From NCBI GenBank assembly GCA_021776175.1, contig JAJFGJ010000030.1, forward strand, positions 1 through 64,000: a stretch of DNA of 64,000 bases, given 5' to 3'. Shown here one piece after another: positions 31,546 through 40,767 of the stretch. Below the pieces are notes generated by a model. The model saw only the letters and a program-made list of their open reading frames with translations, was not told the origin of the DNA and did no database searches. The stretch is from Kiloniellaceae bacterium. Its GTDB lineage: Bacteria; Pseudomonadota; Alphaproteobacteria; Kiloniellales; J153. Within the stretch, counting starts at the first letter, position 1, and each line of letters opens with the position of its first letter. The position numbers were made by a program, and so were the translations under genes.

Positions 31546-32478
31546 ATGACCGATGAAACTATTGCCCAGGCGCGCGCGGCCATGGCTACGCTGCCGCTAT
31601 TCAAAAACCTGGACCCGGCGCGCGTCGCGGTGACGCGGCTTGGCGGCCTGACCAATCTAGTGTTCCGCATTGACGATAACGGCGAGAGCTTTTGCCTGCG
31701 GCTTCCCGGCCAGGGCACGGAAGAATACATCGACCGCGAGGTCGAGGCCCACAACGCGCGCGCCGCCGCCGCCGTGGGGGTCAGCGCCGAGGTCCTCCAC
31801 GCCGACGCCGCCAGCGGCGTCATGGTCACGCGCTTTCTGGACGGCGCCGAAACCATGTCGCCCGAGACCTTCCGCGCCAAGGCGGGAGCGGCGGCGCGCG
31901 CGGCCCAGGCTTTCCACAAGTTGCACACCGGCGGGCAAAGTTTCGAATTCCGGTTCGAGTTATTCGCCATGATCGACGACTACCTGAAAATTCTAGCCAC
32001 CAAGAGCGTCGATTTCCCGCCCGGCTATCACGATGTCCTGAAGGAAGCCGAGGCGGTGCGCGAAGCCTTGACCGCGCGGCCGGGCATCTTGGCGCCCTGT
32101 CATTGCGATCCCTTGTGCGAGAACTTCCTGGATACGGGCACGCGCATGTGGATCGTCGACTGGGAATATTCCGGCATGAACGATCCCATGTGGGACCTGG
32201 GCGACCTGTCGGTCGAGGCCGGGTTCGAGGCGGCCCACGACGAGGCCATGATGAACGCCTACTTCCCCGGCGGCGCGGGCGAGGCCGACTGGGGCCGCAT
32301 GGTCATCTATAAGGCCATGTGCGATCTGCTGTGGACCCTCTGGGGCTTGATCCAGCACGCCAACGACAATCCGGCGGAAGATTTCTGGGCCTACGCCACC
32401 GGCCGCTTCGCCCGCTGCAAAACCCTCATGGCCACCCCGGCCTTCGCCGGCCATTTGCAAGCGGTGCGCCGGGGATAG
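31546..32478 (+). CDS. choline kinase-like phosphotransferase (second)
   Basis: The 310-residue protein follows AGGAGG. It has RLGGLTNLVFRIDDNGESFC for ATP, catalytic APCHCDPLCENFLDTG and metal-binding IVDWEYSGMNDPMWDLGDLS. This is closer to the choline/ethanolamine kinase type than the first copy (which has GHNDLLAANF). It is the last gene of the operon. Directly after its stop lies an RHS fragment, so the RHS array begins at the operon end. Confidence 0.85.
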   Translation: MTDETIAQARAAMATLPLFKNLDPARVAVTRLGGLTNLVFRIDDNGESFCLRLPGQGTEEYIDREVEAHNARAAAAVGVSAEVLHADAASGVMVTRFLDGAETMSPETFRAKAGAAARAAQAFHKLHTGGQSFEFRFELFAMIDDYLKILATKSVDFPPGYHDVLKEAEAVREALTARPGILAPCHCDPLCENFLDTGTRMWIVDWEYSGMNDPMWDLGDLSVEAGFEAAHDEAMMNAYFPGGAGEADWGRMVIYKAMCDLLWTLWGLIQHANDNPAEDFWAYATGRFARCKTLMATPAFAGHLQAVRRG

Positions 32479-32484
32479 CGGGCG

Positions 32485-32626
32485 AGGTTAGCGGCGCTGC
32501 CGGCGATGGAGACGGTCCCGCCGAAGGGTTTGGCGACCCGGTCCCAGGCCAGCGCCCCGGCCTGATCGGTCATCCTTTGCGGCGTGCCCAGGTGATCGGC
32601 GTGAACGTAGAGCTGCGAAAGGCTGA
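32485..32626 (-). pseudogene. RHS core fragment (module A)
   Basis: Minus-strand sequence reads YVHADHLGTPQRMTDQAGAL, then AWDRVAKPFGGTVSIAGSAA and breaks off into the kinase gene end. This is the conserved RHS repeat immediately before a toxin tip. The tip itself is missing. It is the most distal scar of the array. Confidence 0.8.
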
Positions 32627-32685
32627 AGCTGCCGCACCTCAGCGGTGAAGTTGGTAGCTAACCTAGTGTATTTATGGATTCAACT

Positions 32686-32964
32686 CTATCGACGGTGTTT
32701 GACGTGGATCAAAATTTCACCGACTGCATATGAAACTAACACTCCAAAAAACAATTGAACAATCACACCGATAAGCACAAGGGAATCGAAGTAACCAAGG
32801 TTAATCCTCGCATAAATCTGAAATACGAGGCACAGAACAGCAGCGACTGCTATTGACTTTAACAAGACCGCACGGCGCAAATGCGTGTTCCACATTACGG
32901 GTAGGGATATCATAGCGACACCTGCGAAGTATCCCCAAACAACAAAATTCTCGCTACCGTTCAT
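32686..32964 (-). CDS. small membrane protein, probable immunity to the PLA2-type RHS tip
   Basis: The 92-residue protein has three hydrophobic helices: NFVVWGYFAGVAMISLPVMW, AVLLKSIAVAAVLCLVF and SLVLIGVIVQLFFGVLVSYA. It ends ILIHVKHRR. Its start overlaps the end of the RHS-PLA2 gene by 11 bp, the usual toxin-immunity arrangement. A membrane location fits protection against a phospholipase. No family recognised. Confidence 0.6.
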   Translation of the reverse strand: MNGSENFVVWGYFAGVAMISLPVMWNTHLRRAVLLKSIAVAAVLCLVFQIYARINLGYFDSLVLIGVIVQLFFGVLVSYAVGEILIHVKHRR

Positions 32965-33480
32965 CGCATTGACCTACTTGGCAAGCCTGTTTCTGTGCTT
33001 GTATATATGCGCTCTGCCCGAAGCTTTTGGCGGATTTGTAATGAGTTCTTGCCACTACCCGACAAAATGAACCTATCGATGACTCGTACTTTCGGCATTG
33101 AGCCTCCATACAACTAACAAAATTACCGTCGCATTCAGTCTTTGAAATATTGCATGTCCCGTAGCACCTATCGTGTTGATCGCAGCAAGGCGAAAACGGA
33201 AAACCGAACGGGTTATCGGCAATGAAAGGTTCGTTGTAGCCGCTACCGCATGTTGCTAGGCCAAATCGGTCAGCGAATTTAGCCGGGTTCCCTTCAACAT
33301 ACCCATAGGTATTCAATCCACCATCCAAGCCGATTGGATCGGATTGCAGATATCGCCCGGTGCTCGGGTCGTAGTCGCGGAAATAGTTGTAGTGGAAGCC
33401 GGTTTCCGGGTCGTTAAGCTGGCCGGGGAAACGCTGCGGGTTGGTTGCCGCGCCGGTGAGGGAGACGGTCTCGCCGAAGG
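32954..33480 (-). pseudogene. RHS C-terminal tip with phospholipase A2-like toxin domain (module B), truncated by IS6
   Basis: The remaining segment holds the RHS end (TGFHYNYFRDYDPSTGRYLQ, then SDPIGL and GGLNTYGYVEGNP), then a tip with PCCDQHDRCYGTCNISKTEC. CCxxHDxCY is the catalytic His-Asp signature of secreted PLA2s, and surrounding Cys (FVSCMEAQC, GSFCR) would form the disulfides. Upstream the frame enters the antisense of the IS6 transposase, so the RHS delivery part is lost. The toxin is probably silent unless recombined into a full rhs gene. Confidence 0.85.
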
Positions 33481-34281
33481 GGTTTGTCAAATTAACTCTG
33501 GGGCGCGGGTGATTGGATGATAGATTTCTCCGATGCAGGAAATCTCGTATCGGCGCCACCGCTTTCACCCTGACATCATTAAGCAAGCCGTTTGGCTCTA
33601 CTTCCGCTTTACGATGAGTAATCGGGATGTCGATGATCTGTTGGCCGAGCGCGGCGTTGACGTCAGCTATGAAACGGTTCGCCTGTGGGTGCTGAAATTC
33701 GGACGCGCCTATGCTCATAAGATCAGAAAACGCCGTGGCTCCGCGCTCAACATCTGGCACCTGGACGAAGTCTTCGTGAATATCGGCTGCAAGCAGATGT
33801 ACTTGTGGCGGGCGGTTGATGGAGAGGGCGAGGTGCTGGACGTTCTGGTTCAGAAGCGCCGGAACAAGCGGGCCGCCTTGAATCTTATGCGGAAATTGCT
33901 GAGAAATCAGGGCGTGCGTCCGACACAGATCGTGACGGATAAACTGAAGTCTTACGGTGCGGCATTTCGGGAATTGCGTCTCACCCACCTTCACGATACC
34001 GGACATCGCTTGAACAATCGGGCTGAGAGTTCGCACGTTCCAATACGACGATGGGAACGAAAAATGCAGCATTTCAAATCACAAAGTCCAGCGCAAAGAT
34101 TCCTCTCCACTCACGGCCCTATCTACAATCTATTCAACGTCCACCGTCACCTCATCTCCCGTCGCACACTTCGAATTTTCCGCGACCTGGCGATGGCGGA
34201 ATGGCAAACCGTGACAGCGGCCATGTGAACCGCTCTGGCTCTGAGTTTCGGCTGGCCTTGCTCAAGTTAAGTTGACAAGCC
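33481..34281 (+). mobile_element. IS6-family insertion sequence, complete
   Basis: About 801 bp bounded by imperfect inverted repeats: left GGTTTGTCAAATTAACT (33481-), right GGCTTGTCAACTTAACT when inverted (ending 34281). It contains one intact transposase. The left end lies inside the RHS module B sequence. The right flank is not the continuation of RHS, and the flanking 8-mers differ. A deletion or replicon-fusion event next to the element is therefore likely. Confidence 0.85.
33533..34228 (+). CDS. IS6-family DDE transposase
   Basis: The 231-residue protein has a HTH region (FTMSNRDVDDLLAERGVDVS) and the complete catalytic triad: Asp78 (IWHLDEVFV), Asp136 (IVTDKLKSY) and Glu165 (NNRAESSHVPIRR). 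The C-terminal MQHFKSQSPAQRFLSTHGPI is family-typical. Length is normal, so it is probably active. The fragment at 553-786 is a diverged relative. Confidence 0.95.
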   Translation: MQEISYRRHRFHPDIIKQAVWLYFRFTMSNRDVDDLLAERGVDVSYETVRLWVLKFGRAYAHKIRKRRGSALNIWHLDEVFVNIGCKQMYLWRAVDGEGEVLDVLVQKRRNKRAALNLMRKLLRNQGVRPTQIVTDKLKSYGAAFRELRLTHLHDTGHRLNNRAESSHVPIRRWERKMQHFKSQSPAQRFLSTHGPIYNLFNVHRHLISRRTLRIFRDLAMAEWQTVTAAM

Positions 34282-34369
34282 CCGCCAGGGTATTTCTTCT
34301 CAGTACAACCAGAAACCTAATTAGTGCACTGTCACCGAAATCCGAAATCCCACCGAAATCCAAGTGACT

Positions 34370-34588
34370 CTAAGTGAGATCCACAAATCCCTCGCTCCAG
34401 TTTAACTCATTTAGAGGATACCTATCCACGCTAAAACCGTTCGGGGTTTCGCAAAAACCAGGTGCTGTTTTCATTTTCTCAACTGCGGCCCCTGCATTTT
34501 TCCTGTTAGAAAATATCCCGATAATCTTGACGTCCTCATCATCCTCGCCCTCGCTCCGGACATGCTGGACCAGAAAAACATCTGTCAT
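34370..34588 (-). CDS. probable immunity protein for RHS module C
   Basis: The 72-residue protein (MTDVFLVQHVRSEGEDDEDV then IGIFSNRKNAGAAVEKMK, ending WSEGFVDLT) belongs to a small acidic family often found beside RHS and other polymorphic toxins, as I recall. A GTG four codons earlier (34600) is an alternative start. It directly follows the toxin-tip gene at 34616 on the same strand. Confidence 0.65.
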   Translation of the reverse strand: MTDVFLVQHVRSEGEDDEDVKIIGIFSNRKNAGAAVEKMKTAPGFCETPNGFSVDRYPLNELNWSEGFVDLT

Positions 34589-34615
34589 GTCGCTATCCAC
34601 TTCGAGTATATCGGA

Positions 34616-35497
34616 TCACTTGAACGCCCTATCTCCCCATTTTTTGATCTTGCCGTGCTCACTTTTTGGCCCTTTCCTATAGTTTCCACGTCCGTATTTC
34701 CGATCTAAAAGACGATCTGCGAAATCTCGCCCCTTTTCACCAACAAGTGGTCGTTCTCCTCTGGCCCAACTGGGTACATCTTTGGCGCCCTCCTCCCCAG
34801 ATATGTTTGGCTTAGGTTCTTTTGTCGGTCGTGAGGATTGATCGCCGTTGCTATCATCAGAAGACTCATTTAGTAGCGGACGATCATACCAATCGCTTGG
34901 TAATGGGCAGACATTGCCAATCCAATTTAGGAATTGATCGATGTCCGGTACGCGGCACAAATCCGGACTAGTCAAGCATATGGCCGTGGCGACAATTGGA
35001 ACGCCATAGATTACCAAGGGTATAATCGCCGCGGCTAACTTGCCATCCGGATCGTAGTAGTTTACCGGGTTCCCACCCACATACCCATAGGTATTCAATC
35101 CGCCCGCTAACCCGAATGGATCGGATTGTAGATATCTGCCTATACTCGGGTCGTAGTCGCGGAAATAGTTGTAGTGGAAGCCGGTTTCCGGGTCGTTAAG
35201 CTGGCCGGGGAAGCGCTGCGGGTTGGTGGCGGCGCCGGTGAGGGAGACTGTCTCGCCGAAGGGTTTCTGCACCCGGTCCCAGGCCGGCGCCCCGGCCTGG
35301 TCGGACATCCTTTGCGACGCGCCCAAGTGATCGGCGTGGACGTAGAGCGGCGCCTCGGCATCATTTGAGACAAATCGTATCGCATCGGCGGCGACATTGT
35401 GCAAGATAGTCTTGCCGCCGGGCTCGGCTACAAAGCGCACCTCGCTGGCTATTTCATAGTCATTGGCGTCGTCGCTAAAGGCACTTATGATAAGCAC
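34616..35497 (-). CDS. orphan RHS C-terminal tip (module C), unknown toxin
   Basis: Frame of 293 residues. The RHS core starts around VAADAIRFVSNDAEAPLYVH and runs through GGLNTYGYVGGNPVNYYDPD. A linker with a hydrophobic stretch (PLVIYGVPIVATAICL) follows. The tip ends SWARGERPLVGEKGRDFADR, YGRGNYRKGP and KIKKWGDRAF, a C-terminal pattern I associate with many RHS/polymorphic toxins but cannot name. No delivery domain or convincing start is present; it is a displaced cassette. Confidence 0.75.
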   Translation of the reverse strand: MLIISAFSDDANDYEIASEVRFVAEPGGKTILHNVAADAIRFVSNDAEAPLYVHADHLGASQRMSDQAGAPAWDRVQKPFGETVSLTGAATNPQRFPGQLNDPETGFHYNYFRDYDPSIGRYLQSDPFGLAGGLNTYGYVGGNPVNYYDPDGKLAAAIIPLVIYGVPIVATAICLTSPDLCRVPDIDQFLNWIGNVCPLPSDWYDRPLLNESSDDSNGDQSSRPTKEPKPNISGEEGAKDVPSWARGERPLVGEKGRDFADRLLDRKYGRGNYRKGPKSEHGKIKKWGDRAFK

Positions 35498-35529: not shown

Positions 35530-36000
35530 TTACTTTCTGCTTCTATCGATCCTAAAAAGAATCTCTTCGGAAAGCTCCTTGAATTGACGATAAACCTCTA
35601 GGTCTTTCGTCCTTAAGGCGCTGCCTAGCTTGGTGCGAAGCTGGTGAAGTATCAGGCGGGCGTGGTCAGTTTGGTCCTGTCGTTCACAATACTGAGCAAA
35701 GAATATTTCCATACCTCCCTCATTTTCGAGATTCGTATATCCAAGTTCAACAATATTATTGTGCAGCGTCTCAGCTGTTTCGAACGGAACATTACGATCA
35801 CAAAGCAATCTCATCTTCCATTCCGCCACTCGGCGTTTGACTTCCAGTTCCAGTTCTTCGGACAGCACCAATGTTAGGCACGTCGCCTCAGCCTCATTAA
35901 AAGCAGGAGCGATCTCGTCTGTCTGCATTTTGAATGTACGCGCCGCCGTGCGCTCCAATAGGCGCGCAACCTCCTTTGAATTAGTTTCCGCGTTATTCAT
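35530..36000 (-). CDS. probable immunity protein for RHS module D
   Basis: The 156-residue, mainly helical, acidic protein (MNNAETNSKEVARLLERTAA, LSEELELEVKRRVAEWKMRL, GGMEIFFAQYCERQDQTDHA) is AT-richer than metabolic genes. It starts 10 bp after the tip gene at 36010 ends. I recognise no family; the position defines the call. Confidence 0.6.
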   Translation of the reverse strand: MNNAETNSKEVARLLERTAARTFKMQTDEIAPAFNEAEATCLTLVLSEELELEVKRRVAEWKMRLLCDRNVPFETAETLHNNIVELGYTNLENEGGMEIFFAQYCERQDQTDHARLILHQLRTKLGSALRTKDLEVYRQFKELSEEILFRIDRSRK

Positions 36001-36009
36001 GGCAACAAC

Positions 36010-36771
36010 CTATTGGAAGTTCCAGTAATCGCACCTGACAGCGCCGCTACCTGTTATCGCAATATCGGGCCATGTTCCACTGTTCCGAACACACTGATCA
36101 CGGCATACGCCACAGCGACTGCTTCCATAAACACTCCCTGGGAGATCGGCCAGCGATGTATCTAGGCACCTGGTAAAGTGCTCATCACAGCTTGGGTCAT
36201 CATTATCTGCCGAACAAAATTCGTAGAGCAAATACGCTCCGACACCGGCACCGGCCGCCGCATATCCGGCCCATTTTGGCAACGCCGCATCGGTGGGGTC
36301 CGGCACCAACACATCGCCAACCACCGTACTCCACCAAAGAGTGGCGGCCGCCTGGGCATCCTCGCCATCCGGATCATAGTAGTTAACTGGATTACCGCCG
36401 ACATACGCATATGTATTCAACCCACCGCCCAAGCCAATTGGATCGGATTGTAGATATCGCCCGGTCGTGGGGTCGTAGTCGCGGAAATAATTGTAGGAGA
36501 ACCCGGTTTCCGGGTCGTTAAGCTGGCCGGGGAAGCGTTGCGGGTTTGTCGCCGTACCGGTTAAGGACACCGTCCCGCCGAATGGTTTGGCGACCCGGTC
36601 CCAGGCCAGCGCCCCGGCCTGGTCGGTCATCCTTTGCGGCGTGCCCAGGTGGTCGGCGTGGACGTAGAGCGGCGCCTCGGCGTCGTTCGAGACAAATCTC
36701 ACCGCGTCGGCGGCAACACTGCGCTGGAAAATACCGGGGTCGCTGGTGCTGGTATCGGTGGCGAAGCGCAC
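36010..36771 (-). CDS. orphan RHS tip (module D) with Cys-rich end, unknown toxin
   Basis: RHS core (YVHADHLGTPQRMTDQAGAL ... GGLNTYAYVGGNPVNYYDPD), then a hydrophobic stretch (WAGYAAAGAGVGAYLLYEFC). The tip has about eight Cys: PSCDEHFTRCLDTSLADLPG, SSRCGVCRDQCVRNSGTWPD and a final CDYWNFQ. The upstream edge carries a duplicated VAADAVRF segment (about 36700-36790), a visible trace of recombination. Toxin activity unknown. Confidence 0.75.
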   Translation of the reverse strand: MRFATDTSTSDPGIFQRSVAADAVRFVSNDAEAPLYVHADHLGTPQRMTDQAGALAWDRVAKPFGGTVSLTGTATNPQRFPGQLNDPETGFSYNYFRDYDPTTGRYLQSDPIGLGGGLNTYAYVGGNPVNYYDPDGEDAQAAATLWWSTVVGDVLVPDPTDAALPKWAGYAAAGAGVGAYLLYEFCSADNDDPSCDEHFTRCLDTSLADLPGSVYGSSRCGVCRDQCVRNSGTWPDIAITGSGAVRCDYWNFQ

Positions 36772-36825: not shown

Positions 36826-37137
36826 CTAGTCTGCTTTTTTTCGTTTCCGTGTGATTCGCTCAATATATTTTTTTTCGCCATCAACTAAGCGTTTAACGAT
36901 CCTCAATTTCTCACGATCCTCATAGCTTGCATCAGCGTAGTCTTCAAGAAACCAGCGATACCACGGCTCGAATTCGGGACCGAAATCCACCCCGATCCTG
37001 TCACACAGAGTCCGAAGAATCAGGTTCTTTTCTATGGGCTCTAACGGCTCCAGATCGGGAAAAATTTTCGCCCTCCCGCCTTTCATTAATTCGATCAGCA
37101 AGTGAAGTACGGGAGCGTTTTCAAGTGTGTTAGACAT
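36826..37137 (-). CDS. probable immunity protein for RHS module E
   Basis: Start at ATG 37137, 5 bp after the tip gene stop, giving 103 residues (MSNTLENAPVLHLLIELMKG, PWYRWFLEDYADASYEDREK, ending ITRKRKKAD). A small helical protein of no recognised family, placed as the cognate immunity by position. Confidence 0.6.
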   Translation of the reverse strand: MSNTLENAPVLHLLIELMKGGRAKIFPDLEPLEPIEKNLILRTLCDRIGVDFGPEFEPWYRWFLEDYADASYEDREKLRIVKRLVDGEKKYIERITRKRKKAD

Positions 37138-37142
37138 GAGAG

Positions 37143-37800
37143 TTAGAACCTCGGTAGCCGTGGGCAGTAGTCTGGACACTGAACGCAAAATACGGACGCA
37201 CTTAGTTCGTACTGTCTTTCCAAAAAGGTCGTATCGGCTCCGAGAGCTTTCATTTTCTCTATTAGCAAATATTCCTCAACAAGTAGGAGGAACCATTCCT
37301 CACAATCGACTTCACATTCGTTGTCGTTCGCTGGTGGGTCATTTGGCTGGTTTCCACCATTTCCTGCGCCCTTGTCTGGGCCGTAGCAAATCTGGGGAAA
37401 GAACCTACAAATCAAATAGGGATCAAAAGGAGACTTTCCAGATGGATCAGTAAATCTGACAGGATTGCCTACTGCGTACCCATAGGTGTTCAACCCGCCC
37501 GCCAAGCCAATCGGATCGGATTGTAGATATCTCCCGGTCGTCGGGTCGTAGTCGCGGAAATAGTTGTAGTGGAAGCCGGTTTCCGGGTCGTTAAGCTGGC
37601 CGGGGAAGCGCTGCGGGTTGGTGGCGGCGCCGGTGAGGGAGACTGTCTCGCCGAAGGGCTTCAGCACCCGGTCCCAGGCCAGCGCCCCGGCCTGATCGGT
37701 CATCTTTTGCGGCGTGCCCAGGTGATCGGCGTGAACGTAGAGCGGCGCCTCGGCATCGTTCGAGACAAATCTCACCGCATCGGCGGCGACAGAGCGCAGG
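37143..37800 (-). CDS. orphan RHS tip (module E), unknown toxin
   Basis: RHS homology begins at SVAADAVRFVSNDAEAPLYV (about 37797) and ends GGLNTYGYAVGNPVRFTDPS. The open frame extends to 37883, but that extra part is unrelated and overlaps an opposite gene. The tip is about 95 residues with six Cys (YLICRFFPQICYGPD; NDNECEVDCEEW; FCVQCPDYCPRLPRF) and an acidic helical centre. No catalytic motif recognised. Confidence 0.7.
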
Positions 37801-37875
37801 ACCCAACCGTGCGCTAGGCCAGTTTGAGGTAAACTAGTATTTCTGTGAGAGAAGAGAATCGAGAGGTAGACGAAA

Positions 37876-38274
37876 ATGCACAATGAGCAGGAATTGATCT
37901 TTGTTAAGACGTTCGTTTCCTCTGATCAGCGGCGCAGATTTACAGAACTTCTGAAAACCTCGAAGGGCCGAAAACGCTTCATTGGTTACCTGGCACATTC
38001 ACTGAAGCTAAACAAAGAACTCGCGGCGAAGATTCCTGCGTCGCTTTAGGATTCAGCAAGTATTGTAGAAATACTCCGGAAAAAAGGTGCGAATGCAGAT
38101 TGCTTCGTTATATCAGAAAATCCGAAATTAGACCGAATGACCGGGCCGCTCGATGAAATTTGTAACAGTGTAATTGGTTCTGGATTCGCCACGATTGTCT
38201 CGTGCCGCCTCGGTTTGCTTGCCTATTTTGAGGGTGAAGACATGGGCGAGCGATACATACTTGAAAAACCATAG
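37876..38274 (+). pseudogene. small conserved protein interrupted by one in-frame TAG
   Basis: One continuous frame of 132 sense codons is broken only by TAG at 38047-38049 (codon 58). It reads MHNEQELIFVKTFVSSDQRR ... AKIPASL, stop, DSASIVEILRKKGANADCFV ... VSCRLGLLAYFEGEDMGERY. I recall relatives with an unbroken IP..Q stretch at this place, so CAG to TAG is a likely cause. AGAGG precedes the ATG. The family is uncharacterised. It is the only plus-strand gene in the RHS array. Confidence 0.65.
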
Positions 38275-38300: not shown

Positions 38301-38639
38301 TCAGTTGATATCTGTATCACTGCGGTATGTGTGAAACCTAGCGAATCTAGCAGAACCTGTTTCTTCTGCCTGTTCTTCCAAAGAAAGTAATTCTTCAGAA
38401 ATTTGGAAATGTTTCTTCCGTTCATCGAACGGCTCTATTTCTTCGATTGACAGCACATCAATACGCATTTCAATGGCCGCCTTGCGAACCTGCTCCCTAA
38501 AATGCGAGCGGTCATAGGCCAAGGCGACTACATTCACGTAAGCACCCAGGGCCTTATCAAAAACACCGCTATCATCTGCCGAAACTACGTTCGCAAGTCC
38601 AATCCACATTTGCTTTTCAATAGTATCTCCAGCCCTCAT
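38301..38639 (-). CDS. probable immunity protein for RHS module F
   Basis: The 112-residue protein (GVFDKALGAYVNVVALAYDR, FREQVRKAAIEMRIDVLSIE, then EIEPFDERKKH) starts 15 bp after the RHS module F stop. The GAYVNVVA and AAxEM patterns recur in small proteins beside polymorphic toxins, in my recollection. It is acidic, consistent with binding a basic toxin tip. Confidence 0.65.
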   Translation of the reverse strand: MRAGDTIEKQMWIGLANVVSADDSGVFDKALGAYVNVVALAYDRSHFREQVRKAAIEMRIDVLSIEEIEPFDERKKHFQISEELLSLEEQAEETGSARFARFHTYRSDTDIN

Positions 38640-38654
38640 CTGCTTTTAACTTCG

Positions 38655-39325
38655 TTATTTTGGATAGGTGTGATGAGCTCCACCCGGTTTCTTGCCTCCC
38701 TTACTATCGGTTGGGTGGTAGTGAGGCTTCCGCCCGTCTGTGGGAGTCGGGTGATGGATCGGGGGCCCCTTGCCGTCATTCCGGGCGGCGTCCCTAGCGC
38801 GTTTCCTAGTCGGGTGCTCCTTATCATGCCTCTTTGGCTTTCCACTGGGACCATTCTCAGAACTAGGGGCGTCAGATTCGTTCTGTAAAACAGTATCATA
38901 CCAGTCCGCCGGCAGCGGGCAATATTGGGCCAGCTCATTGAAGTCCGGCACGAGGCACAAATCCGGTGCCAGATAGCAGTAGATAGCACCGCCGATGGCT
39001 AGGGTTCCCGCCACACATGCGGGGTTGGCGATACAGGCGATAGCCAACGGCACAAGCGGTAGAGCAAACTCTCCCGTCGGATCGACGTACCTAACCGGGT
39101 TCCCGCCCACATACCCATAGGTATTCAACCCGCCCGCCAACCCAATCGGATCGGATTGCAGGTATCGCCCTATACTCGGGTCGTAGTCGCGGAAATAGTT
39201 GTAGTGGAAGCCGGTTTCCGGGTCGCTAAGCTGGCCGGGGAAGCGCTGCGGGTTGGCGGCGGCGCCGGTGAGGGAGACGGTCTCGCCGAAGGGTTTCTGC
39301 ACCCGGTCCCAGGCCAGCGCCCCGG
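38655..39325 (-). CDS. orphan RHS tip (module F), basic His-rich toxin end
   Basis: RHS homology starts inside AGALAWDRVQKPFGETVSLT, abutting the glycerate-kinase gene end, and passes GGLNTYGYVGGNPVRYVDPT. A hydrophobic stretch follows (LVPLAIACIANPACVAGTLA). The tip is very basic: KPKRHDKEHPTRKRARDAAR, then DGRKPHYHPTDSKGGKKPGG and AHHTYPK. The HYHPTD-type ending is common in polymorphic toxins and suggests a nuclease, unproven. It is the most upstream module, with no RHS delivery gene beyond it. Confidence 0.75.
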
Positions 39326-39343
39326 CTTACGCTTGTTGATCGC

Positions 39344-40615
39344 CTAGGGCTTTGGATCGCCCGCGATCAAAATCGCCCGGAAGTCGTTGACGTTGGTGCG
39401 GGTCGGGCCGGTTATGATCAGATCGCCGAGCTTGGAAAAGAATCCATAGCCGTCGTTGTTGGTCAGGCTGGCGCGCGCATCGAGGCCCAGGGCTTCGGCA
39501 CGCGCCAGGGTGTCGGGACCGGCCAGGGCGCCGGCGTTATCTTCGGTTCCGTCGATGCCGTCGGTGTCGCAGGCCAGGGCGTGAATGCGCGGCGCGCCGG
39601 CCAAATCCGCGGTGAGGGCCAGCAGGAATTCCGCGTTGCGCCCGCCCCGGCCCTCGCCGCGCACCGTGACCGTTGTCTCCCCGCCCGAAAGCAACACGGC
39701 GGGTGCGGGCGTGGGCTGTCCGTGGCGCGCGACCTGACGCGCGATGCCCGCGTGCATGAGAGCGATATCGCGTGCCTCGCCTTCGATACTATCGCCCAGA
39801 ATTACCGGCGTGACGCCGGCCTCGCGCGCAACCCGCGCCGCCGCCTCCAGCGAGTCTTGCGGGGTGGCGATGAGTTTGGTTTCCACGCGGGCCAGGCGCG
39901 GATCGCCGGGTTTGGGCGTCTCCTCCGCCGCCGCTTTCAAATGCGCGAGGACGTCGCGCGGTTCTTCGATCCTATAGGCCGCCAGGACCGCCAAGGCGTC
40001 GGCGAAGCTGGTCGGGTCCGCCACCGTGGGGCCCGAGGCTATGGCCGAAAGATCGTCGCCCGGCACATCGGAAATGGCCAGGGTCACGACCCGCGCCGGC
40101 GCGCAAGCCATGGCCAAGCGGCCGCCCTTAATGGCCGAGAGGTGTTTGCGGACGCAGTTGATCTCGCTAATGGTCGCGCCGGATCGCAACAGGCGCGCGG
40201 TCACGCCACGTTTGTCTTCAAGCGTCAGGCCCGGCGCCGGGGCGGCCAGCAAGGCCGAGCCGCCGCCCGAGATGAGGCACAGGACCAGATCGTCCGCCGT
40301 CAGACCGCCAACCATTTTCAGAATACGATCCGAGGCTTCGCGCCCGGCGCTGTCGGGCACCGGGTGGGAGGCCTCGACCGCCTCGATATGGCGGCAGGGG
40401 GCGCCGTGGCCGTAGCGGGTCACGACCAGGCCTTCCAGGGGGCCGCTCCAATTATCCTCCACCGCCTTGGCCATGGCCGCCGCCGCCTTGCCCGCGCCCA
40501 CGACTATGGTGCGGCCCTTGGGCGGCTCCGGCAGGTGGGGCGGCACGCAGCGCGCCGGGTCCGCCGCCGCGACCGCCGCCTTGAATAGATCATTCAGGAA
40601 TGCATTGGGAATCAT
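39344..40615 (-). CDS. glycerate 2-kinase (GckA/TtuD, MOFRL family)
   Basis: Start chosen at ATG 40615 (MIPNAFLNDLFKAAVAAADP); 423 residues. N-terminal domain with RTIVVGAGKAAAAMAKAVED, VLCLISGGGSALLAAP and SGATISEINCVRKHLSAIKG. The C-terminal MOFRL domain has PAVLLSGGETTVTVRGEGRG, GGRNAEFLLAL, ACDTDGIDGTEDNAGA and LTNNDGYGFF, then GPTRTNVND. All family motifs are present. It makes 2-phosphoglycerate from glycerate and may serve the glycine/serine flux from the betaine operon; that link is inference. Confidence 0.92.
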   Translation of the reverse strand: MIPNAFLNDLFKAAVAAADPARCVPPHLPEPPKGRTIVVGAGKAAAAMAKAVEDNWSGPLEGLVVTRYGHGAPCRHIEAVEASHPVPDSAGREASDRILKMVGGLTADDLVLCLISGGGSALLAAPAPGLTLEDKRGVTARLLRSGATISEINCVRKHLSAIKGGRLAMACAPARVVTLAISDVPGDDLSAIASGPTVADPTSFADALAVLAAYRIEEPRDVLAHLKAAAEETPKPGDPRLARVETKLIATPQDSLEAAARVAREAGVTPVILGDSIEGEARDIALMHAGIARQVARHGQPTPAPAVLLSGGETTVTVRGEGRGGRNAEFLLALTADLAGAPRIHALACDTDGIDGTEDNAGALAGPDTLARAEALGLDARASLTNNDGYGFFSKLGDLIITGPTRTNVNDFRAILIAGDPKP

Positions 40616-40663
40616 GGACCTAGTTTTACAATCAACCGCGTTAGGGAACAAAGCGCGAAGAAG

Positions 40664-40767
40664 GTTTACCACGAAGGCCCGAAGACACGAAGAAGCCGCG
40701 AAGCAGATTTCATATTTTATATCTTCGCGTCTTCGCGCCTTAGTGCCTTAGTGCCTTAGTGGTGAAT
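40664..40767. repeat. solo palindrome of the GxxExxY-flanking repeat
   Basis: GTTTACCACGAAGGCCCGAA (40664-) and the inverted CGCCTTAGTG...AGTGGTGAA (to 40767) face each other over about 20 bp, with GCGAAGA/TCTTCGC tracts. The same inverted ends flank the GxxExxY gene at 45262-45754. Here there is no gene between them. Confidence 0.6.

What the first reader, a model, noticed from the sequence alone, without database searches (positions are those of the whole stretch)
32686..33480. RHS tip carrying a phospholipase A2 signature paired with a three-helix membrane immunity candidate
CCDQHDRCY plus surrounding cysteines matches the PLA2 catalytic site. The downstream gene overlaps by 11 bp and encodes a membrane protein, a sensible place to counter a membrane-degrading toxin.
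Basis: partly seen in the sequence, partly recalled or inferred. Interest (0 to 1): 0.58.

Follow-up and report, generated by a model that had tools for sequence, protein, structure and literature searches.

The report
Silent phospholipase toxin cassette with immunity
A broken-off bacterial toxin tip that looks like a fat-cutting phospholipase A2 sits in a row of spare toxin cassettes, next to a small membrane protein that is probably its antidote; the toxin type was known, but a recurring membrane antidote for it seems not to have been recorded.

Summary
The tip (window 32954-33490, minus strand) carries an RHS core (TIGR03696, 5e-25) and a phospholipase A2 domain over the Pfam cut-offs of PF06951 (group XII, 2.9e-13) and PF09056 (1.6e-7). 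The model's four best solved-structure matches are all PLA2s. The 92-residue ORF overlaps it by 11 bp and has three predicted helices.

The interpretation needs context. The tip is an orphan. It lies in an array of six RHS-core pieces with no full-length RHS gene, and no T6SS ClpV over cut-off, in a 90%-complete assembly. An IS6 element has removed the upstream part of its core. It is therefore probably silent, while the small gene can still be translated.

The antidote idea gained support. In the nearest relative (L056, 47% identical tip) the next gene is a homologous three-helix protein (2e-6). Of 26 RHS tips with this PLA2 domain, 16 are followed by an ORF with two or more predicted membrane segments, against 8 of 46 other RHS tips in the same genomes (p=2e-4). 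Zhang et al. 2012 list Tox-PLA2 as an RHS toxin with no immunity protein. Activity and protection are untested.

The parts
32957..33259 (-). Group XII-like phospholipase A2 toxin domain, catalytic motif CCDQHDRCYGTC, conserved second Asp in KTECDGNF
   Evidence: PF06951 2.9e-13 and PF09056 1.6e-7; PDB 1faz 1.1e-7; AF2 mean pLDDT 85.5; PLA2s top the fold matches
33260..33484 (-). RHS-associated core of the same reading frame, cut at its upstream side by the IS6 element
   Evidence: TIGR03696 residues 3-78 of the tip, 5.1e-25; repeat family D1
32686..32964 (-). 92-residue three-helix membrane protein, candidate immunity; overlaps tip by 11 bp; AGG 8 nt before its ATG
   Evidence: homologue at the same place in L056
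33479..34283 (.). IS6-family insertion sequence, imperfect terminal repeats 16 of 18, no target-site duplication seen
   Evidence: NF033587 4.6e-62 for ORF 33533-34228 +; terminal repeats; flanks read
34370..35497 (-). RHS cassette 2: core plus tip (34616-35497) and 76-residue next gene without TM segment (34370-34600)
35530..36771 (-). RHS cassette 3: core plus tip (36010-36771) and 156-residue next gene (35530-36000); only its first 50 residues were scored, no TM segment
36826..37883 (-). RHS cassette 4: core plus tip (37143-37883) and 120-residue next gene without TM segment (36826-37188)
38301..39347 (-). RHS cassette 5: truncated core plus tip (38655-39302) and 112-residue next gene without TM segment (38301-38639), abutting the glycerate kinase stop
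32469..32618 (-). Remnant of a sixth RHS core at the far end of the array
   Evidence: 80% identity over 50 residues

Best explanation
This is an orphan RHS toxin/immunity cassette. The tip is a group XII-like secreted phospholipase A2 meant to be carried on the end of an RHS protein, which would cut membrane phospholipids of a rival from the periplasmic side. The overlapping 92-residue gene makes an inner-membrane protein whose TM2-TM3 loop (RINLGYFDS), predicted to face the periplasm by its charge pattern, would bind and block the enzyme there. In this genome the tip has lost its head and half of its core (an IS6 element ends in it), so the toxin is probably not made or delivered, while the immunity gene keeps its own start and a plausible ribosome-binding site and may protect against neighbours that use the same tip. 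Shown: PLA2 homology and fold, RHS core, overlap, array, IS, homologous partner in the nearest relative, enrichment of membrane partners. Inferred: enzyme activity, periplasmic site, binding, silence of the toxin, protection.
For: PLA2 and RHS profiles; fold. A scan of 84,980 species' contigs and viral contigs for CCxxHDxCYxxC gave 56 + 11 stretches; 38 sequences in 37 loci were kept and 30 loci set aside by eye as chance frames. With the window, 26 of 39 carry the RHS core and 28 of 39 match PF06951. Membrane partner (an ORF with at least 2 TM segments starting -60 to +150 nt from the stop): 16 of 26 RHS-PLA2 tips, 8 of 46 other RHS tips of the same genomes (p=2.3e-4), 1 of 31 in the window's order; it holds at four TM thresholds and without the window, 15 of 25. 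The 92-residue protein matches the next gene of L056 (phmmer 2.3e-6) and L056's matches L046's (about 1e-7); L056 is the tip's nearest relative. The next genes of the other four tips in the window array show no TM segment. No RHS head and no ClpV over cut-off in the own assembly. Orphan cdi/rhs modules without start signals but with immunity genes able to be expressed, some broken by IS elements, are described by Poole et al. 2011 (PMC3150448, passages seen).
Against: 10 of 26 RHS-PLA2 tips lack such a partner. Most membrane partners are not recognisably homologous to one another; window to L046 is only E 0.06. The control includes L178, itself PLA2-like and without a membrane partner; moved across, the counts are 16 of 27 and 8 of 45. 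The calcium-loop D-x-C[ST] signature printed for Tox-PLA2 is not met in the window (A-T-C-G), so activity is not assured. Silence is inferred: the frame runs on into the IS with possible start codons, and the assembly is only 89.65% complete. The immunity model is of modest confidence.
Confidence: 0.68

Rival explanations
1. The tip is a PLA2 fold but no longer an enzyme, and the whole cassette is a decaying remnant in which neither gene matters.
For: Core truncated by IS6, no head or ClpV in the assembly, calcium-loop Asp absent, no promoter-like site in 32600-34400.
Against: The catalytic His, both Asp and the cysteines that are invariant in the 27-sequence alignment are intact, both ORFs are open, and the overlap and a start with a plausible RBS are kept.
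Confidence: 0.2
2. The 92-residue membrane protein is not immunity but a helper of the toxin, for instance for insertion or release, or an unrelated gene that hitch-hiked.
For: No direct test; membrane partners are diverse and mostly not homologous; 10 of 26 tips lack one.
Against: Position directly after the tip with overlap is where RHS immunity genes lie; homologous partner in the nearest relative; enrichment against matched controls.
Confidence: 0.12

Closest known systems
Tox-PLA2 of polymorphic toxin systems (Zhang et al. 2012, PMC3482391; table row and passages seen)
   Same: PLA2 fold toxin domain at the end of RHS proteins
   Different: Its printed signature DxC[ST], CxxHxxxYxN is only partly met (window ATCG; CDQHDRCYGT); the table gives no immunity protein, here a three-helix membrane candidate is attached
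Group XII secreted PLA2, PF06951
   Same: Best Pfam match, over cut-off; CCxxHDxCYxxC cysteine pattern
   Different: Bacterial RHS tip rather than a eukaryotic secreted enzyme; PMC11297309 (passages seen) calls the domain 96% eukaryotic
Prokaryotic PLA2, PF09056 (Streptomyces 1faz/1kp4)
   Same: Over cut-off; conserved His and Asp align
   Different: More cysteines and RHS-borne
Orphan rhs-CT/cdiA-CT modules (Poole et al. 2011, PMC3150448; passages seen)
   Same: Array of displaced tip plus immunity pairs, one cut by an IS
   Different: No full-length head gene in the assembly; sits between a glycerate kinase and a phosphotransferase-like gene

Membership tests
RHS toxin tip | RHS-associated core directly before a variable C-terminal domain | tested here: met
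   TIGR03696 5.1e-25, residues 3-78
RHS toxin tip | attached to a full-length RHS protein | tested here: not met
   Core cut by IS6 at 33479; no full-length relative in the own assembly; hence filed as an orphan cassette
Phospholipase A2 (PF06951 / PF09056) | profile score over the curated cut-off | tested here: met
   50.6 bits against 34; 32.3 bits against 29.4
Phospholipase A2 (PF06951 / PF09056) | PLA2 fold | tested here: met
   AF2 pLDDT 85.5; Z 9.7, 7.5, 7.3 and 6.9 to four PLA2s, next row 5.1
Phospholipase A2 (PF06951 / PF09056) | catalytic His with adjacent Asp and second Asp present | tested here: met
   H31, D32 and D46 invariant in 27 sequences; aligned with 1faz. That these are the catalytic residues of 1faz is recalled
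Phospholipase A2 (PF06951 / PF09056) | His-Asp geometry in the model | not testable with these tools
   No model coordinates were returned
Tox-PLA2 (Zhang 2012 signature) | DxC[ST] and CxxHxxxYxN | tested here: not met
   Window has ATCG and CDQHDRCYGT: C, H and Y kept, D and N not; so called group XII-like rather than a strict member
Cognate immunity protein | gene directly downstream of its tip, conserved with it in relatives | tested here: met
   11-bp overlap; homologue after the nearest tip L056
Cognate immunity protein | protects against the toxin | not testable with these tools
   Needs a bench assay

The most novel reading that the evidence does not exclude
Group XII-like PLA2 RHS tips form a widespread periplasm-acting toxin class, seen here in Proteobacteria, Planctomycetota, Verrucomicrobiota, Lentisphaerota and Nitrospirota. 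It is neutralised at the membrane by several unrelated small multi-helix immunity families, and in some loci possibly by membrane-anchored beta-propellers. The so-called eukaryotic group XII enzymes would share ancestry with these bacterial toxins.
Probability: 0.3. Interest if true: 0.6.

Novelty: new member of a known kind. Interest (0 to 1): 0.42.

Why it matters
It gives testable membrane immunity candidates for a toxin class that the main catalogue lists without one, and a way to ask how a cell is protected against a lipid-cutting enzyme at the membrane itself. It also shows that the PLA2G12 domain, described as mostly eukaryotic, is spread over several bacterial phyla as RHS tips.

Tried and rejected
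Pattern-based look-ups with the single tip in genome contigs and viral contigs found no relative; phages none; plasmids only Streptomyces phospholipases plus weak hits. PF06951 in 398 genomes of the phylum rang only in the own genome, so this is rare per genome. Among 98 relatives only the own genome and G059 matched the tip; the G059 ORF shows no RHS core by eye.

The 92-residue protein has no hit in Pfam at E 1, only a sub-cut-off NCBIfam match at 0.035, and none in PADLOC. The match H18 on a Pseudoalteromonas plasmid (E 0.04, found with L056's protein) has no RHS gene beside it and was dropped. DUF7670 matched one of three members at 0.0082 only. Its matches in other genomes of the order were weak, best 0.006.

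Rows dropped before the counts: 30 of 67 loci by eye; of 113 RHS matches (sum of its match column), 60 places were fetched by hand-picking; tails under 25 or over 450 residues, frames without a stop, and duplicates were dropped. A first control regex found 2 and then 20 tips and was replaced by an HMM. The earlier count with another pipeline was 16 of 25 against 1 of 18. A note that says about 16 RHS loci is superseded by 26 of 39. No promoter-like site was found in 32600-34400. The PDB comparison listed no animal group XII structure; that absence is not evidence.

Full report
Observation. The tip ORF on the minus strand ends at 32954 and shows the motif CCDQHDRCYGTC. Its first part is an RHS-associated core (TIGR03696, 5.1e-25), and the rest matches group XII PLA2 (PF06951, 2.9e-13) and prokaryotic PLA2 (PF09056, 1.6e-7), both over the curated cut-offs. 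Solved PLA2s are found by sequence (1faz 1.1e-7). An AlphaFold2 model from 27 sequences has mean pLDDT 85.5. Foldseek gives 4aup at E 2.7e-3 and 1faz at 0.04, both with probability 1.00, and VIA-align gives Z 9.7, 7.5, 7.3 and 6.9 for four PLA2s, with the next row at 5.1. The next ORF, 32686-32964, overlaps by 11 bp and has three predicted membrane segments.

Context. The tip lies at the end of an array of six RHS-core pieces between 32469 and 39347, all on the minus strand. Four further tips have next genes of 76, 156, 120 and 112 residues in which no membrane segment was found (of the 156-residue one only the first 50 residues were scored). The flanks are a glycerate kinase-like ORF (39344-40672) and a phosphotransferase-like ORF (31546-32478), both named by eye. 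In a congener (G003) these two flanks lie about 220 bp apart; in two others (G001, G002) the site holds other genes. So this is a variable site. The own assembly (39 contigs, 89.65% complete) has no full-length RHS gene of this type and no ClpV over the T6SS cut-off. G003 has an RHS gene with an 84% identical core, in two adjoining frames, with RHS repeats and Golvesin_C domains, and a ClpV over cut-off.

The insertion. The ORF 33533-34228 is an IS6-family transposase (4.6e-62). Imperfect terminal repeats at 33479 and 34283 pair 16 of 18. The 8 bp on either side differ, and no RHS core lies beyond the far end. An adjacent deletion removed the upstream half of the core; that is an inference. 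What is left of the tip has only weak start codons before the catalytic motif (TTG at 33490, 33328 and 33316), so the toxin is probably not made. The 92-residue gene has an ATG with AGG 8 nt upstream.

Relatives. A pattern scan for CCxxHDxCYxxC gave 56 stretches in the 84,980-species collection and 11 in viral contigs. I set aside 30 of 67 loci by eye as chance frames, leaving 38 sequences. With the window, 26 of 39 carry the RHS core and 28 of 39 match PF06951. Record titles place them in Proteobacteria, Planctomycetota, Verrucomicrobiota, Lentisphaerota, Nitrospirota and others. PMC11297309 (passages seen) describes PLA2G12 as 96% eukaryotic and reports a haloarchaeal eCIS-associated protein with it for which cytotoxicity to yeast was not confirmed.

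Partner test. For each RHS-PLA2 tip I asked whether an ORF starting -60 to +150 nt from the stop has at least two hydrophobic segments. It does in 16 of 26 tips, against 8 of 46 other RHS tips from the same genomes (Fisher p=2.3e-4) and 1 of 31 in the window's order. At thresholds 1.4, 1.6, 1.8 and 2.0, p stays below 4e-4; without the window it is 15 of 25, p=4.4e-4. These tips are not independent draws, so p is a guide only. One control, L178, is itself PLA2-like without a membrane partner. Some tips without a small membrane partner are followed by proteins of about 370 residues with one N-terminal segment (L088, L090), one of which has weak beta-propeller matches.

Pair conservation. The nearest tip is L056 (47% identity; a three-row group with 95/87 support that also holds the long-branched L078). 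Its next gene overlaps by 4 bp and encodes a three-helix protein of 94 residues that matches the window's (phmmer 2.3e-6; BLASTP 3e-6 for a single comparison). L056's matches that of L046 (about 1e-7 either way), while window to L046 is only 0.06. The three share LG[YH]xD between helices 2 and 3. Positive charges in loop 1 and at the C-terminus suggest, by the recalled positive-inside rule, that this loop faces the periplasm.

Reading. The best-supported account is an orphan RHS cassette with a group XII-like PLA2 and its membrane immunity protein, with the toxin silent here. Orphan modules that mostly lack start signals while their immunity genes appear able to be expressed, some broken by IS elements, are described in PMC3150448 (passages seen). 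Zhang et al. list Tox-PLA2 on RHS proteins with no immunity and with the signature DxC[ST], CxxHxxxYxN, which the window meets only in part. Searches for Tox-PLA2 and for RHS phospholipases with immunity (listings only, beyond the passages named) showed me no described immunity for this class; subscription papers are not held, so this is not proof of absence.

Noticed in passing
L088, L090, L091, L084, L059, L079 (next gene after the PLA2 ORF): Several group XII-like PLA2 loci are followed not by a small multi-helix protein but by a 270-470 residue protein, most with an N-terminal hydrophobic segment; L091's matches a WD40-like propeller (5.7e-17) and L090's has weak propeller matches, while L059 and L084 matched nothing. 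They could be another immunity type.
   Followed up: partly
window 33479-33490: The left end of the IS6 element carries a perfect TTGACA facing the truncated tip, but no promoter-like pair was found by scan.
   Followed up: partly
L233 7164-12832 and L234 3576-10605: The site that holds the RHS array in the window carries other genes in two congeners (sigma factor-like, DUF4331-like and HupE-like by eye) and is nearly empty in a third.
   Followed up: partly
L178 (G502:C283): An RHS tip with ACERHDRCYETC, a group XII-like PLA2 that the pattern scan misses because the first Cys is Ala; the class is larger than counted.
   Followed up: no
window 33533-34228 against G000:C30, C4, C14, C23: Seven further matches to IS6-type transposases in the own genome, several only partial, and another IS6-like ORF lies behind the RHS gene of G003 (L024 13794-14489, by eye).
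   Followed up: no
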